Shown piece by piece: positions 19,139-24,166 of a stretch of DNA of 64,000 nucleotides; within the stretch, counting starts at the first letter, position 1, and the number at the start of each line of letters is the position of its first letter. Both the position numbers and the translations under genes were made by a program. The DNA lies in NCBI RefSeq assembly GCF_001642085.1, contig NZ_CP014699.1, forward strand, positions 62,001 through 126,000. Direction: 5' to 3'. The notes beneath the pieces are model-generated. The model had not been told where the DNA came from, ran no database searches, and saw only the letters and a list, made by a program, of their open reading frames with translations. This stretch comes from Streptococcus pantholopis (GTDB taxonomy: Bacteria > Bacillota > Bacilli > Lactobacillales > Streptococcaceae).

Positions 19139-19245
19139 GAACACGCCCTAAACGCTGCGGGAAAAAGATGTCCTGACTTAGAATCTGACGATTCGTCAGT
19201 CAGTCCCCTATTTGCCTTTTGCGTTTTTCACGGGCTTTGTATCTT
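19139..19245 (+). repeat. dispersed repeat copy 2, compact form (yidC-jag)
   Basis: 107 bp starting two bases after the yidC stop. Basal helix CTAAACGC/GCGTTTTTCA; middle helix CTGACT/AGTCAG; apical hairpin GAATC-TGAC-GATTC. Ends with GTATCTT. Confidence 0.92.
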
Positions 19246-19254
19246 GTTGGAATT

Positions 19255-19362
19255 GAACACGCCCTAAGAGCTGTGCAAAAAAGATAAAATTTCCTAGAGT
19301 CTTAGCGACTCTTCGTCAATTTTCCTATTTTTGCTTTGCTCTTTTCACGGGCTTTGTATCTT
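19255..19362 (+). repeat. dispersed repeat copy 3, compact form (before jag)
   Basis: 108 bp, nine bases after copy 2. Basal helix CTAAGAGC/GCTCTTTTCA; middle AAAATT/AATTTT; apical GAGTC-TTAGC-GACTC. GTATCTT is followed after six bases by the jag ribosome binding site GGAGAG. Confidence 0.92.
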
Positions 19363-19381
19363 GTTGAAGGAGAGAGTTGTT

Positions 19382-20365
19382 ATGGTGATTTTCACAGGTT
19401 CAACTGTTGAAGAGGCTATCGAAAAAGGATTGGAAGAGTTGCAAATCTCGCGTTTGAAAGCACATATCAAGGTTATTGCACGTGAGAAAAAAGGATTTCT
19501 GTGGTTTGGAAAGAAACCGGCACAGGTTGATATTGAAGGGATTGCTGAAACGACAGCGCATAAGGCTGACCAAAGAGCGGTCAAAGGGGTGCCTGATGCT
19601 GTTAATCGGCAAAATGAACCTGTCTCTTCGCAGCTTGAGGATGCACTCGAAATGGCCAAAGTCAGCGGCATGATAAAGAAAAAAGAAAAAGCCGGTCAAG
19701 CTGTTGGGGACAAATTCAAGGAAACAGTCTTGGATACTAAAAAAACACCGCAGACACTTTTAAGAGAAGTTCAAAAGGAAGAAGGTGTTTTGGAAGTTAA
19801 TCCGGCAGAGGGTGCTCCGGTCAGCAGCTCATTATCTGAAGCAGCAGAAAGGGACAGTGATTTTGCAGCCTTTGTAGCAGCAGAGTTTGATGTGGAAGCT
19901 CAAAGTGGTGATATTGAACAGGCAGTTGCTGGCGTAAGTGATTATGTCAAAAAAATTATTTATGAGATGGATATTGATGCCACTATTGAGACCAGCCATA
20001 CGAGCCGTCAGATTAATCTGCAGATTGAAACACCGGAAGCCGGCCGTGTCATCGGTTATCATGGGAAAGTTTTGAAATCGCTGCAGCTTCTAGCTCAGAA
20101 TTTCCTGTATGATCGCTTTTCAAAAAATTTCATTGTTTCGCTGAATGTCCATGACTATATTGAACATCGGACCGAAACGCTGATTGACTTCACACAGAAG
20201 GTTGCCAGACGGGTGCTGGATTCAGGCCGCAGTTATACCATGGACCCAATGAGTAACAGTGAGCGAAAAATCGTTCATAAAACGATTACTAAAATTGAAG
20301 GTGTCGAGAGCTATTCAGAAGGCAATGACCCCAACCGCTATGTTGTGGTTGCTTATAAGCGATAA
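19382..20365 (+). CDS. jag: RNA-binding protein Jag (KhpB/EloR)
   Basis: 327 aa from ATG 19382, behind GGAGAG. Domain order: Jag-N (1-55, MVIFTGSTVEEAIEKGLEEL...FLWFGKKPAQVDI), a long charged linker (about 56-185), a KH domain (about 190-255, VIGYHGKVLKSLQLL) and a C-terminal R3H domain (about 265-327, RTETLIDFTQKVARRVLDSGRSYTMDPMSNSERKIVH). In pneumococcus it pairs with KhpA to bind RNAs and modulate cell elongation. The linker is long and low-complexity. Its 5' region is made of two tandem dispersed repeat copies ending six bases before the ribosome binding site. Confidence 0.95.
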   Translation: MVIFTGSTVEEAIEKGLEELQISRLKAHIKVIAREKKGFLWFGKKPAQVDIEGIAETTAHKADQRAVKGVPDAVNRQNEPVSSQLEDALEMAKVSGMIKKKEKAGQAVGDKFKETVLDTKKTPQTLLREVQKEEGVLEVNPAEGAPVSSSLSEAAERDSDFAAFVAAEFDVEAQSGDIEQAVAGVSDYVKKIIYEMDIDATIETSHTSRQINLQIETPEAGRVIGYHGKVLKSLQLLAQNFLYDRFSKNFIVSLNVHDYIEHRTETLIDFTQKVARRVLDSGRSYTMDPMSNSERKIVHKTITKIEGVESYSEGNDPNRYVVVAYKR

Positions 20366-20485
20366 AATACGCATTAAGTTGTTGGAGCAAAGTAGGAAGT
20401 GCAAGTGAGTTCGGAATATGCTTTCCTTGAAATCCTGCATCAGTTTCTCTATATTTTCTTTCGTTCAATAAAAGTTCAGTAAATC

Positions 20486-20514
20486 TTGACAGGGTCAAAG
20501 CTTTATTATAAAAT
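20486..20514 (+). promoter_or_regulatory. rpmH promoter
   Basis: TTGACA (20486-20491), 17-bp spacer, TAAAAT (20509-20514), about 78 bp before rpmH: a strong ribosomal-protein promoter. Confidence 0.85.
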
Positions 20515-20591
20515 AGATGAGTATGTTTAGTAACTGATATCACATAGCCGGCTAAACGAATACGAAATTCTATGAGGAGGTATTCTGAAAC

Positions 20592-20726
20592 GTGAAACGG
20601 ACTTATCAACCAAGTAAAATTCGCCGTCAGCGTAAGCACGGTTTCCGTCACAGGATGGCAACTAAAAACGGCCGCCATGTATTGGCCAGCCGCCGTCGCA
20701 AAGGACGCAAAGTTTTATCAGCTTAA
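20592..20726 (+). CDS. rpmH: 50S ribosomal protein L34
   Basis: 44 aa, GTG start at 20592 behind GAGGAGG. The whole protein is the conserved Arg/Lys-rich L34 sequence (KRTYQPSKIRRQRKHGF ... RRRKGRKVLSA). It belongs to the large ribosomal subunit. In many bacteria rpmH lies upstream of rnpA; here it follows jag on the same strand with its own promoter and terminator. Confidence 0.97.
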   Translation: MKRTYQPSKIRRQRKHGFRHRMATKNGRHVLASRRRKGRKVLSA

Positions 20727-20747
20727 AAGAGCTGTGTTGTAACAAGG

Positions 20748-20779
20748 AACCGGAAGTGCTCGAGGCTTTCGGTTTTTTT
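20748..20779 (+). terminator. rpmH terminator
   Basis: Stem AACCGGAAG with CTTTCGGTT (one G-T wobble), then seven T. Confidence 0.85.
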
Positions 20780-20944
20780 AATGCAGTGCCTGTTCAAAAT
20801 GTTTTTGCCTTTAAAATCAATCTCTGTGAAAAAGCAAATAAAGGTCTTTTCTAGTCGCGCTGTGCTGCGTTAGCAGAAATTTTAAACTGCCGCTGTAAAA
20901 GTCAGCAGGCGGTGAAGCAAAGCTGTTTTTATATTTTTCTTAAA

Positions 20945-20972
20945 TTGATTTTAATTTATTTTGTGATATGAT
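20945..20972 (+). promoter_or_regulatory. possible distant promoter of the ZIP transporter gene
   Basis: TTGATT (20945-20950), 16-bp spacer, TATGAT (20967-20972). If used for the transporter, the 5' untranslated RNA would be about 700 nt and would contain four repeat copies. Confidence 0.5.
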
Positions 20973-21090
20973 AAAAACAGCAGGTTTAAAAGAGCAGAGG
21001 TTTAGGAATCATAAGCCGGAATAAGCATTTGTTTTAAAATTATAAAACCTGAGAGAACCCGCCTTAAGTTTAGAGATTGACTGGCTGTAG

Positions 21091-21165
21091 AGGTGCGCAG
21101 ACGAAATCACAGATTTCTGGCTTACCGTCATTTTTGTTTTGCTCTGTTCACGGGTTTTGTATCTT
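21091..21165 (+). repeat. dispersed repeat copy 4, right part only
   Basis: End of an internal module (AGGTGCGCAG, hairpin GAAATCACAGATTTC) plus the right arm ending GTATCTT. The left arm is missing. Confidence 0.85.
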
Positions 21166-21173
21166 ATGAAATT

Positions 21174-22905: not shown

Positions 22906-22976
22906 GCAAGGTCAAGTGAACATTTTAAAGTTTTAAAAAAGAATAAAATACCATTAGCCTACTGTATCTTAGCAAG

Positions 22977-23155
22977 GGTGCGCCTGCGAAATCAGAGATT
23001 TCGGACTTACCGCTAGCCGTAGCCGTCTGAAGGTTTTGTCGTCCTAGCGACCGACCGCACCCTTCTAGTCGTCCTGGCAGGGGTGCGTCTGCGAAATCAT
23101 AGATTTCTGGCTTACCGCCATTTTCATACGGATTTTTTAACGGGCTTTGTATCTT
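22977..23155 (+). repeat. dispersed repeat copy 9, two internal modules plus right arm
   Basis: GGTGCG starts at 22977 and again at 23082, exactly 105 bp apart. The module helix is GAAGG/CCTTC and its hairpin GTCG-TCCTAG-CGAC. The right arm ends in GTATCTT at 23155. Left arm missing. Confidence 0.88.
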
Positions 23156-23162
23156 ATTAATT

Positions 23163-23267
23163 GAACACGCCCTAAAATCCTAGTGAAAAAGATGACATCT
23201 ATCGCGATGAGAGTCATCGCTCGTCTGTCCCTATTTTCATACGGATTTTTAACGGTCTTTGTATCTT
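23163..23267 (+). repeat. dispersed repeat copy 10, compact form
   Basis: 105 bp. Basal helix CTAAAATCC/GGATTTTTAA; apical hairpin GCGATGA-GAG-TCATCGC. Confidence 0.92.
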
Positions 23268-23275
23268 GGTGAATT

Positions 23276-23384
23276 GAACACGCCCTAAACGCTGTGTAAA
23301 AAAGATAGACTTCCCTAGAGTCTTTAATAACTCAGCGGTCAGTCTCCTATTTTTACTTTGCGTTTTTAACGGGCTTTGTATCTT
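23276..23384 (+). repeat. dispersed repeat copy 11, compact form
   Basis: 109 bp. Basal helix CTAAACGC/GCGTTTTTAA; middle AGACT/AGTCT; apical GAGT/ACTC. Identical to copies 12 and 15. Confidence 0.93.
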
Positions 23385-23392
23385 GGTGAATT

Positions 23393-23501
23393 GAACACGC
23401 CCTAAACGCTGTGTAAAAAAGATAGACTTCCCTAGAGTCTTTAATAACTCAGCGGTCAGTCTCCTATTTTTACTTTGCGTTTTTAACGGGCTTTGTATCT
23501 T
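23393..23501 (+). repeat. dispersed repeat copy 12, compact form
   Basis: 109 bp, identical to copy 11 and offset by exactly 117 bp (109-bp unit plus linker GGTGAATT). Confidence 0.93.
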
Positions 23502-23509
23502 GGTGAATT

Positions 23510-23717
23510 GAACACGCCCTAAAATCTTAGTGAAAAAGATGGTATAACCATGCTTTGTAATAGCAATTGATTAGAAAAGCCGTAGCCGTCTGAAAGCTTT
23601 ATCGCCTTAACAGTCGACCGCACCTTTCTAGTCGTTCTGGCAGGGGTGCGTCTACGAAATCATAGATTTCTGGCTTACCGCCATTTTCATACGGTTTTTT
23701 AACGGGCTTTGTATCTT
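23510..23717 (+). repeat. dispersed repeat copy 13, long form
   Basis: 208 bp. Left arm CTAAAATC, then AAAGATGGTATAACCATGC and an internal module with helix GAAAG/CTTTC and hairpin GAAATCATAGATTTC, then the right arm. Confidence 0.92.
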
Positions 23718-23725
23718 GGTGAATT

Positions 23726-23934
23726 GAACACGCCCTAAAATCCTAGTGAAAAAGATGGTATAACCATGCTTTGTAATAGCAATTGATTAGAAAAGCCGTA
23801 GCCGTCTGAAAGCTTTATCGTCCTAACGGCCGACCGCAGCTTTCTAGTCGTCTTGGCAGAGGTGCGTCTGCGAAATCAGAGATTTCGGACTTACCGTCAT
23901 TTTCATACGGATTTTTAAACGGCCTTTGTATCTT
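23726..23934 (+). repeat. dispersed repeat copy 14, long form
   Basis: 209 bp, same plan as copy 13. The module helix is GAAAGC/GCTTTC and the basal helix CTAAAATCC/GGATTTTTAA. Confidence 0.92.
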
Positions 23935-23942
23935 GGTGAATT

Positions 23943-24051
23943 GAACACGCCCTAAACGCTGTGTAAAAAAGATAGACTTCCCTAGAGTCTTTAATAACTC
24001 AGCGGTCAGTCTCCTATTTTTACTTTGCGTTTTTAACGGGCTTTGTATCTT
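23943..24051 (+). repeat. dispersed repeat copy 15, compact form
   Basis: 109 bp, identical to copies 11 and 12, showing recent duplication inside the array. Confidence 0.93.
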
Positions 24052-24059
24052 GGTGAATT

Positions 24060-24166
24060 GAACACGCCCTAAGCTCTTTGCAAAAAAGATAAAACTTCCT
24101 AGAAACTGAAGTTTCTTCGTCAGTTTTCCTATTTTTGCTGTGAGCTTTTCACGGTCTTTGTATCTT
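24060..24166 (+). repeat. dispersed repeat copy 16, compact form (before the Gfo/Idh gene)
   Basis: 107 bp. Basal helix CTAAGCTC/GAGCTTTTCA; middle AAAACT/AGTTTT; apical AGAAACT-GA-AGTTTCT. GTATCTT is followed after four bases by AAGGAG and then ATG 24184. Confidence 0.93.

What the first reader, a model, noticed from the sequence alone, without database searches (positions are those of the whole stretch)
19139..24166. Dispersed hairpin repeat whose helices are kept by compensatory changes
Compact copies of 105-109 bp share fixed ends (GAACACGCCCTAA; ACGGGCTTTGTATCTT), AAAAAGAT in the left arm and CCTATTTT in the right. Between them three nested helices change sequence together. Basal helix: CTAAACGC/GCGTTTTTAA, CTAAAATCC/GGATTTTTAA, CTAAGAGC/GCTCTTTTCA, CTAAGCTC/GAGCTTTTCA, CTAAGAAC/GTTCTTTTTA. 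Middle helix: AGACT/AGTCT, AGCCT/AGGCT, AAAATT/AATTTT, AAAACT/AGTTTT, CTGACC/GGTCAG. Apical hairpin: GAGTC/GACTC, GAATC/GATTC, AGAAACT/AGTTTCT, GCGATGA/TCATCGC, GTGATGC/GCATCAC. Paired substitutions in all three helices across about 15 copies show selection for a folded RNA or DNA hairpin, not only sequence copying. I cannot name a described family with these ends.
Basis: seen in the sequence. Interest (0 to 1): 0.93.

Follow-up and report, generated by a model that had tools for sequence, protein, structure and literature searches.

The report
Mobile hairpins at streptococcal gene starts
A roughly 107-letter folding repeat is scattered through Streptococcus genomes with its shape preserved by paired mutations, and in many species it sits inside the ribosome-binding site of essential genes, between the ribosome's docking signal and the start codon, where the ribosome apparently has to step over it.

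Summary
The window lies in a 2.24-Mb Streptococcus chromosome with 229 exact right ends. In 112 distinct copies from ten named genomes 94.5% of cells pair (68.1% shuffled, at most 51% slid) and 28 of 30 pairs have double changes. A covariance model finds the element in 192 of 197 Streptococcus genomes. No Rfam family matches.

The unexpected part lies outside the window. In 35 of 108 copies tested the 3' end is 0-7 nt before an ATG with no Shine-Dalgarno (SD) between; a strong SD lies 5' of the element in 34 of 35, against 6 of 73 others. Genes include prfA, alaS, hisS, parC and dnaJ. Of dnaJ leaders with such an insert 0 of 26 have a proximal SD, of those without 11 of 13. So the element is the spacer of a split ribosome-binding site, as in T4 genes 25 and 38. 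Window copies usually lie just 5' of an intact SD. Occupied and empty prophage sites show mobility. Bridging is inferred, and cannot be the only reason for the fold: copies elsewhere pair equally well.

The parts
19139..19245 (+). compact element, 107 nt, begins 2 nt after the stop codon of a YidC-like gene
   Evidence: 111.8 bits; gene by Pfam
19255..19362 (+). compact element, 108 nt; 3' end 6 nt before the GGAG Shine-Dalgarno of the Jag/KhpB gene
   Evidence: 114.6 bits; gene by Pfam
21055..21165 (+). degenerate copy (ends only)
   Evidence: not found by model R1
21436..21544 (+). compact element, 109 nt, outer helix swapped to GGGC/GCCC
   Evidence: 115.1 bits
21553..21657 (+). compact element, 105 nt, just 5' of the RBS of a ZIP transporter gene
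   Evidence: 97.2 bits
23163..23267 (+). compact element, 105 nt, first of a seven-unit array
   Evidence: 86.4 bits
23276..23384 (+). compact element, 109 nt
   Evidence: 116.6 bits
23393..23501 (+). compact element, 109 nt, identical to 23276-23384
   Evidence: 116.6 bits
23510..23717 (+). long element, 208 nt, same ends and basal helix, different interior
   Evidence: 67 bits
23726..23934 (+). long element, 209 nt
   Evidence: ends; not listed by R1 at E 0.01
23943..24051 (+). compact element, 109 nt, identical to 23276-23384
   Evidence: 116.6 bits
24060..24166 (+). compact element, 107 nt; 3' end directly 5' of GTGAAAGGAG before the oxidoreductase gene
   Evidence: 111 bits
43361..43613 (-). 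long element, 253 nt, 3' end just 5' of the RBS of an impB/mucB/samB-family (dinB-like) gene
43621..43729 (-). compact element, 109 nt
   Evidence: 112.1 bits
47138..47461 (-). long degenerate element, 324 nt, just 5' of a nucleotidyltransferase gene
47469..47574 (-). compact element, 106 nt
   Evidence: 87 bits
58073..58179 (-). compact element, 107 nt, between a signal-peptidase gene and a recD2-like gene, 3' end just 5' of the latter's RBS
   Evidence: (115.3 bits)
58187..58202 (-). right end of a further upstream copy whose left end is degenerate

Best explanation
This is a family of non-coding mobile hairpin elements of about 103-110 nt (AAYT-GAACNCG ... ACGSSC-UUNGUAUCUU) with stacked helices, an apical hairpin and a strongly conserved internal core (AAAAAGAU / CCUAUUUU). 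It inserts at the edges of cistrons, often with its 3' end toward a ribosome-binding site, and multiplies locally by tandem duplication. In the window's genome the gene-proximal copy usually lies 3-8 nt 5' of an intact Shine-Dalgarno (SD), so it is an intercistronic hairpin. In many other streptococci it lies between a strong SD (AGAAAGGA) and the start codon. There the 30S subunit most likely binds SD and AUG together while the folded element loops out, so the element is the structured spacer of a split RBS. Once there, unfolding would separate SD from AUG, so the stems can change only in pairs, or be replaced by another hairpin, or a new SD must arise. Shown here: repeat, covariation, distribution, position, SD-element-AUG order, presence/absence at orthologous sites, occupied and empty prophage sites. 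Inferred: transcription and folding in the cell, ribosome bridging, the transposition route, and the role of the core.
For: Copy number: 229 exact right ends, 426 with at most one mismatch. Covariation. Genus-wide: 192 of 197 genomes. Window genome: 42 of 52 array ends are followed within 36 nt by an SD (loose pattern) and an ORF start, the SD core 3-8 nt after the element in 35 of these 42. Split RBS, tested on 108 of the 117 matches (nine dropped: five second readings of one place, two cut by a locus end, two weak partial ones): 35 have an ATG of an ORF of at least 60 codons 0-7 nt after the 3' end; 0 of 35 have an SD between; 34 of 35 have GAAAGG or AGAGAGG within 45 nt 5', against 6 of 73 others, Fisher p 9e-21. 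By inspection each of those 6 lies 5' of a further copy that ends at a start codon. Only 24 of 226 ordinary ORFs with a proximal SD use GAAAGG. Identity tested for nine genes: prfA, alaS, hisS, parC, fpg/mutM, carB, purB, dnaJ, carA. dnaJ: an insert with the element's 3' end in 26 of 39 loci (16 of 29 from the genome set, 10 of 10 found through element hits), 0 of 26 with a proximal SD and 25 of 26 with a distal GAAAGG; of 13 without, 11 have a proximal SD. parC: 25 of 30 genomes, own genome included, have a distal SD, an insert and no proximal SD. Reduced inserts keep the order SD-hairpin-AUG after losing the core, hairpins judged by eye (L219, L239; L332, L338). L221 keeps a left-end remnant beside a new proximal SD. 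Mobility. Tandem duplication: adjacent spacers identical in 21 of 41 cases, 7% expected.
Against: Copies not in an RBS (antisense, 3' end at a stop codon) pair as well as split-RBS copies (mean 0.949 over 30 against 0.964 over 36), so bridging cannot be the only selection on the fold. Bridging does not need the conserved core. The predicted number of unpaired nucleotides left between SD and AUG does not distinguish real leaders from shuffled ones, although their folding energy does (median z -3.9 over 34 leaders). In several predicted folds SD or AUG is itself paired, and in parC orthologues the SD can pair with the 3' UCYU, which would hinder initiation. Of the five parC leaders without an insert only two show a proximal SD by my pattern, three only weak purine runs. 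No expression, probing or ribosome data were available.
Confidence: 0.62

Rival explanations
1. Selfish repeat only. The hairpin is needed for the element's own movement (recognition as folded single-stranded DNA or as palindrome by a helper enzyme), and copies survive wherever they do least harm, at cistron edges. The split-RBS cases are tolerated accidents in which the SD became usable again.
For: Fold equally kept in copies outside RBSs; hundreds of copies in the window genome against 9-42 matches in each of ten named genomes; prophage insertion; antisense and sense locations.
Against: Does not explain why 34 of 35 start-proximal copies have a stereotyped strong SD 5' and none has one 3', nor the inserts at parC in 25 of 30 genomes picked without regard to parC. 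No helper gene was sought or identified and terminal inverted repeats are weak.
Confidence: 0.22
2. A shared cis-regulatory RNA. The conserved core binds a protein or small molecule, and folding or SD pairing with the 3' UCYU switches translation of many genes.
For: Core kept outside the genus: 17 of 18 examples read carry AAAAAGAT, while stems change; RNAalifold pairs SD AGGA with the 3' end in parC orthologues; 12 of 35 split-RBS copies have an extra 5' stem of at least 6 bp that competes for the left end, against 9 of 76 others.
Against: The genes are functionally mixed; antisense copies at stop codons and arrays of up to seven copies fit poorly; reduced leaders lose the core and keep the split RBS.
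Confidence: 0.12
3. mRNA stability or transcription attenuation element, like intercistronic REP or BOX sequences: the hairpin protects or cleaves polycistronic mRNA.
For: In the window genome 32 of 52 arrays have both neighbouring ORFs in their own direction (longest-ORF calls, rough).
Against: Does not predict the narrow distance to the SD or the SD-element-AUG order.
Confidence: 0.04

Closest known systems
Split ribosome-binding sites of phage T4 genes 25 and 38 (Nivinskas 1999; Malys and Nivinskas, as told in PMC3014915; passages read)
   Same: SD too far from AUG in the linear mRNA, with an RNA structure between them that shortens the distance; for gene 25, close relatives keep it and distant ones lack it.
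   Different: T4 spacings are 22 and 27 nt in single genes. Here the spacer is a dispersed, mobile, covarying element, 107-149 nt from SD to AUG in 34 leaders, in unrelated, partly essential bacterial genes of a whole genus.
E. coli thrS split RBS (PMC3936740, passages read)
   Same: Structured RNA divides the ribosome-binding region.
   Different: One gene, not a repeat.
BOX, RUP and SPRITE repeats of Streptococcus pneumoniae (PMC3049150; abstract, sections 5 and 7 and passages read)
   Same: Small non-coding dispersed repeats of a streptococcus with stem-loop structure, near genes.
   Different: That paper reports them almost absent from S. sanguinis and most other streptococci, while model R1 gives 15 matches in a S. 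sanguinis genome and matches in 192 of 197 genomes. Sequences were not compared directly.
EFAR repeats of enterococci (known here only as a citation in PMC3733652) and Efa-1 of E. faecalis (163 nt, pair of adjacent stem-loops; passages of PMC2267715)
   Same: Palindromic intergenic repeats in the same bacterial order.
   Different: That EFAR and Efa-1 are the same thing is my guess.
'sanguinis-hairpin' and 'ScRE' motifs (PMC2864571, Table 1 rows only)
   Same: Structured-motif candidates in Streptococcus with no Rfam number in the table.
   Different: Cannot be compared: their alignments are in supplements that I could not read. One of them could be this element.

Membership tests
T4-type split RBS | strong SD beyond normal spacing and none next to the AUG | tested here: met
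   34 of 35 and 0 of 35; dnaJ and parC series
T4-type split RBS | conserved RNA structure between SD and AUG | tested here: met
T4-type split RBS | translation depends on that structure | not testable with these tools
   needs reporter or toeprint experiments
MITE / insertion-sequence derivative | terminal inverted repeats | tested here: inconclusive
   ends AAYTGAACACGCCC and AAGATACAAAGCCC match at few positions besides GCCC (read by eye)
MITE / insertion-sequence derivative | target-site duplication | tested here: inconclusive
   prophage comparison suggests about 6 nt; in the window genome the last spacer matches the start of its own 3' flank in 9 of 36 arrays, against 15% for other flanks
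MITE / insertion-sequence derivative | helper transposase with the same ends | not tested
   no search made
S. pneumoniae BOX / RUP / SPRITE | near-absence from most other streptococci | tested here: not met
   192 of 197 Streptococcus genomes; distribution of BOX/RUP/SPRITE from PMC3049150 section 7
Any Rfam 15 family | match at the gathering score | tested here: not met
   0 matches in the window
sanguinis-hairpin / ScRE (PMC2864571) | same consensus | not testable with these tools
   only the table rows are readable

The most novel reading that the evidence does not exclude
A mobile genetic element specialised for the ribosome-binding site: it brings or selects its own AGAAAGGA, settles between SD and AUG of essential genes, and is skipped at initiation as introns are skipped at splicing. 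Fold loss is then lethal or costly, so the host is locked into keeping it, and the conserved core may let a host factor gate many such leaders at once.
Probability: 0.35. Interest if true: 0.95.

Novelty: new variant of a known kind. Interest (0 to 1): 0.86.

Why it matters
The split ribosome-binding sites that I found described are single cases; here a dispersed element appears to have placed structured RNA between SD and AUG in release factor 1, aminoacyl-tRNA ligase, topoisomerase IV and chaperone genes across a genus. That would make how far, and across what, the 30S subunit can bridge SD and AUG testable on natural series of full-length, shortened and lost inserts. It would also be a bacterial case of a parasite made indispensable by position, would affect start-site annotation and expression design in streptococci, and offers an RNA family with strong covariation and an unexplained conserved core.

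Tried and rejected
Pseudoknot between inner AAGAU and 3' AUCUU: the commonest pair of motifs fits (57 of 112 rows), but tail variants (TATCAT, TATCCT, TATCGT) and inner variants (TAGAT) are not matched by the other side, so not supported. Gene-proximal growth of arrays: long copies tend to be distal but p = 0.057. Shortened SD-AUG path in predicted folds: not better than shuffles. Strict 6-nt test for an extra 5' hairpin: 7 of 35 split-RBS copies against 2 of 72; looser stem search gives at least 6 bp in 12 of 35 against 9 of 76, so it is a variant, not a rule. Self-cleaving RNA, group I or II intron and integron attC were considered from memory only and dropped: too short, or wrong ends. Plasmids: one partial match, 42% of the query. 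Paper searches for this element or for split RBSs in streptococci gave nothing that names it: (listings, plus passages of the papers cited). One search uses longest ORFs, which overrun the arrays; one search replaces it for distances in the window genome. Two elements first classed as start-proximal (L285, L303) appear to lie at antisense tRNA 3' ends (my reading) and are not among the 35. The loci sampled from named genomes are the best-scoring model matches, not a random draw, and handles reached through named records can be genomes that also bear another handle (for example G009 and G239).
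Full report
What was checked. Both fixed ends occur far above chance in the window. Nine compact copies of 105-109 nt lie inside 19139-24166, with long (208-209 nt) and degenerate copies among them; further copies lie at 43.4-43.7, 47.1-47.6 and 58.1-58.2 kb on the minus strand. Model R1 finds 13 of these copies at E 0.01. 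The window is position 62001-126000 of an unnamed 2,241,302-bp Streptococcus chromosome, which holds 229 exact right ends, 115 on one strand and 114 on the other, and 426 with at most one mismatch. No Rfam family matches.

Covariation. Thirty-one copies that differ by at least about 7%, picked from 86 distinct compact copies of the window and 37 further stretches of the genome, were aligned by sequence alone. The predicted structure has an outer helix ACA-GCCC/GGGC-UGU, a basal helix, a helix through AAAAA/UUUU, a middle helix and an apical hairpin. 90.9% of cells pair; partners slid by 1-3 columns give 36-55%. Some of this is inheritance from a few subfamilies, since modules such as ACGC/GCGT, GAGC/GCTC, GCTC/GAGC and AATCC/GGATT recur. 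The genus-wide set meets that worry better: 117 model matches (112 distinct rows) in 90 loci of ten named genomes give 94.5% paired cells, double changes at 28 of 30 pairs and a score of 0.665 against 0.185 for shuffles and at most 0.116 slid; this alignment is fitted to the model, which leans towards the structure. Within one site, the parC leader of 16 distinct sequences, a sequence-only alignment gives 14 of 31 predicted pairs with double changes that keep the pair.

Distribution. Model R1 matches 192 of 197 Streptococcus genomes at E 0.001, with at most 19 candidates scored per genome, so copy numbers there are floors. Ten named genomes (S. gallolyticus, S. henryi, S. hyovaginalis, S. sanguinis, S. 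catagoni, Streptococcus sp. F0442, S. ictaluri, S. parasanguinis, S. sobrinus, S. plurextorum) hold 9-42 matches each. In an order-wide draw 52 of 198 genomes match, 27 of them Streptococcus and 25 outside the genus, the latter weakly, best E 5e-9 to 8e-4. Of 18 examples from four of those genomes, 17 carry AAAAAGAT with CCTATTTT, CCTGTTTT or TCTGTTTT opposite, and several stand in tandem.

Position in the window genome. Of 52 array ends in the stretches read, 42 are followed within 36 nt by an SD (loose pattern) and the start of an ORF of at least 60 codons, the SD core 3-8 nt after the element in 35 of the 42. Of the ten others, some are inner copies followed by degenerate ones, and L018, L028 and L029 run into what look like terminator hairpins. 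So in the window the elements are intercistronic hairpins, usually just 5' of an intact RBS and in the sense of the gene that follows, for example YidC-like to Jag/KhpB and signal peptidase to recD2-like.

Position elsewhere. From the 117 matches in ten named genomes I tested 108, dropping five second readings of one place, two cut by a locus end and two weak partial ones. Of these, 35 have an ATG of an ORF of at least 60 codons 0-7 nt after the 3' end. None of the 35 has an SD between element and ATG. In 34 of 35 a GAAAGG or AGAGAGG lies within 45 nt 5' of the element; among the 73 others it does in 6, and by inspection each of the six lies 5' of a further copy that ends at a start codon (for L168 that further copy is a diverged one). 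The 35th (L281) is itself the last copy of such a tandem. Ordinary ORFs of at least 150 codons in the Streptococcus loci use GAAAGG as proximal SD in only 24 of 226 cases. So the SD either travels with the element or only this strong form tolerates it. Gene identity was tested by NCBIfam for prfA, alaS, hisS, parC, mutM, carB, purB, dnaJ and carA; deoD, prmA, uvrA, purE, galE and ftsE are my reading of N-terminal residues and were not searched. A further class lies antisense, with the 3' end mostly -2 to +5 nt from a stop codon (23 of 70), for example after an rpsO-like gene, and two at what read as antisense tRNA 3' ends (L285, L303).

Orthologous sites. dnaJ leaders of 40 loci were read: 30 from a genome set that includes element-poor genomes and 10 met through element hits; 39 had a start, and L148 and L284 are the same place. 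An insert with the element's 3' end is present in 26 (16 of the 29 and all 10): no proximal SD in any, distal GAAAGG in 25, AGAGAGG in the other (L175). Of 13 without it, 11 have a proximal SD by pattern; L220 has AAGG; L239 has a distal GAAAGG with about 38 nt and a possible hairpin between. The window's own dnaJ lacks the insert and has AAAGGA near the ATG (L224). parC leaders of 30 genomes, picked without regard to parC: 25 have an insert with distal SD and no proximal SD, the window's own genome among them (L345); 5 have none, of which 2 show a proximal SD and 3 only weak purine runs. The inserts shrink and change while the order SD-hairpin-ATG remains: L219, L332 and L338 have lost the core but keep what reads as a hairpin. 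L221 keeps only a left-end remnant and has a new SD. This series is the main reason for the bridging proposal.

Mobility. One element lies in prophages of S. agalactiae and S. canis (11 records; three read), directly 5' of the SD of the tail tape-measure gene. Four related prophages read, 90-95% identical over the aligned parts, lack it. The difference in gene spacing is 112 nt, which fits 103 nt from GAAC to TATCTT, three nt AYT and about six duplicated nt (GATAGG/GATGGA), but the flanks differ by point changes, so the duplication is not certain. In the window genome adjacent spacers are identical in 21 of 41 cases against 7% expected, which fits tandem duplication of unit plus spacer.

Reading. 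The bridging mechanism has a precedent: in T4 genes 38 and 25 structures reduce SD-AUG spacing from 22 to 5 and from 27 to 11 nt, and changes that destabilise them lower initiation (PMC3014915, passages). If the outer helices form in our leaders, the ends of the insert are brought together. Against a purely translational reason for the fold, antisense copies are as well paired (0.949) as split-RBS copies (0.964), and the core is not needed for bridging. I therefore hold that the fold is selected twice, once for the element's own persistence and again by position in the split RBS. The second part is inference until tested.

Novelty. Searches of the open-access library found no paper that names the motif or reports split RBSs in streptococci. 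Most subscription papers are not held, and two Streptococcus motifs of 2010 (sanguinis-hairpin, ScRE) could not be compared, so the repeat itself may have been noticed before. I rate the whole as a new variant of a known kind: split RBSs are known, a mobile genus-wide family of them is not, as far as I could see.

Noticed in passing
window 22760-23140 and the interiors of long copies (for example 23510-23717, 43361-43613): Long copies share other interior repeats (GCCGTAGCCGTCTGAAGGCTTTGTAGTC..., GGTGCGTCTGCGAAATCAGAGATTTCGGACTTACCG) that look like a second repeat family nested in the element (read by eye).
   Followed up: no
L122-L143 (unnamed Streptococcus genomes): A copy that mostly lies antisense 3 nt after the stop of an rpsO-like gene (my reading) is nearly identical in 21 loci, 12 of them letter for letter, loops included; it suggests a function or recent exchange.
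   Followed up: partly
L285, L303: Element 3' ends abut what reads as the 3' end of tRNA genes in antisense orientation (not checked with the tRNA finder).
   Followed up: no
G067 C1:3175-9355, 52155-56642 and 115957-116425 (another family of the order): Tandem arrays of a diverged relative with about 121-nt period, in a genome outside Streptococcus.
   Followed up: partly
L152, L248, L282 and other leaders with extra 5' hairpins: The left end (GAACAC or its variants) can pair either with an upstream stretch or with the element's own 3' side, so two exclusive folds are possible.
   Followed up: partly
parC orthologues, alignment A4: RNAalifold pairs the SD AGGA with the element's 3' UCYU next to the AUG, which could gate the SD.
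   Followed up: no
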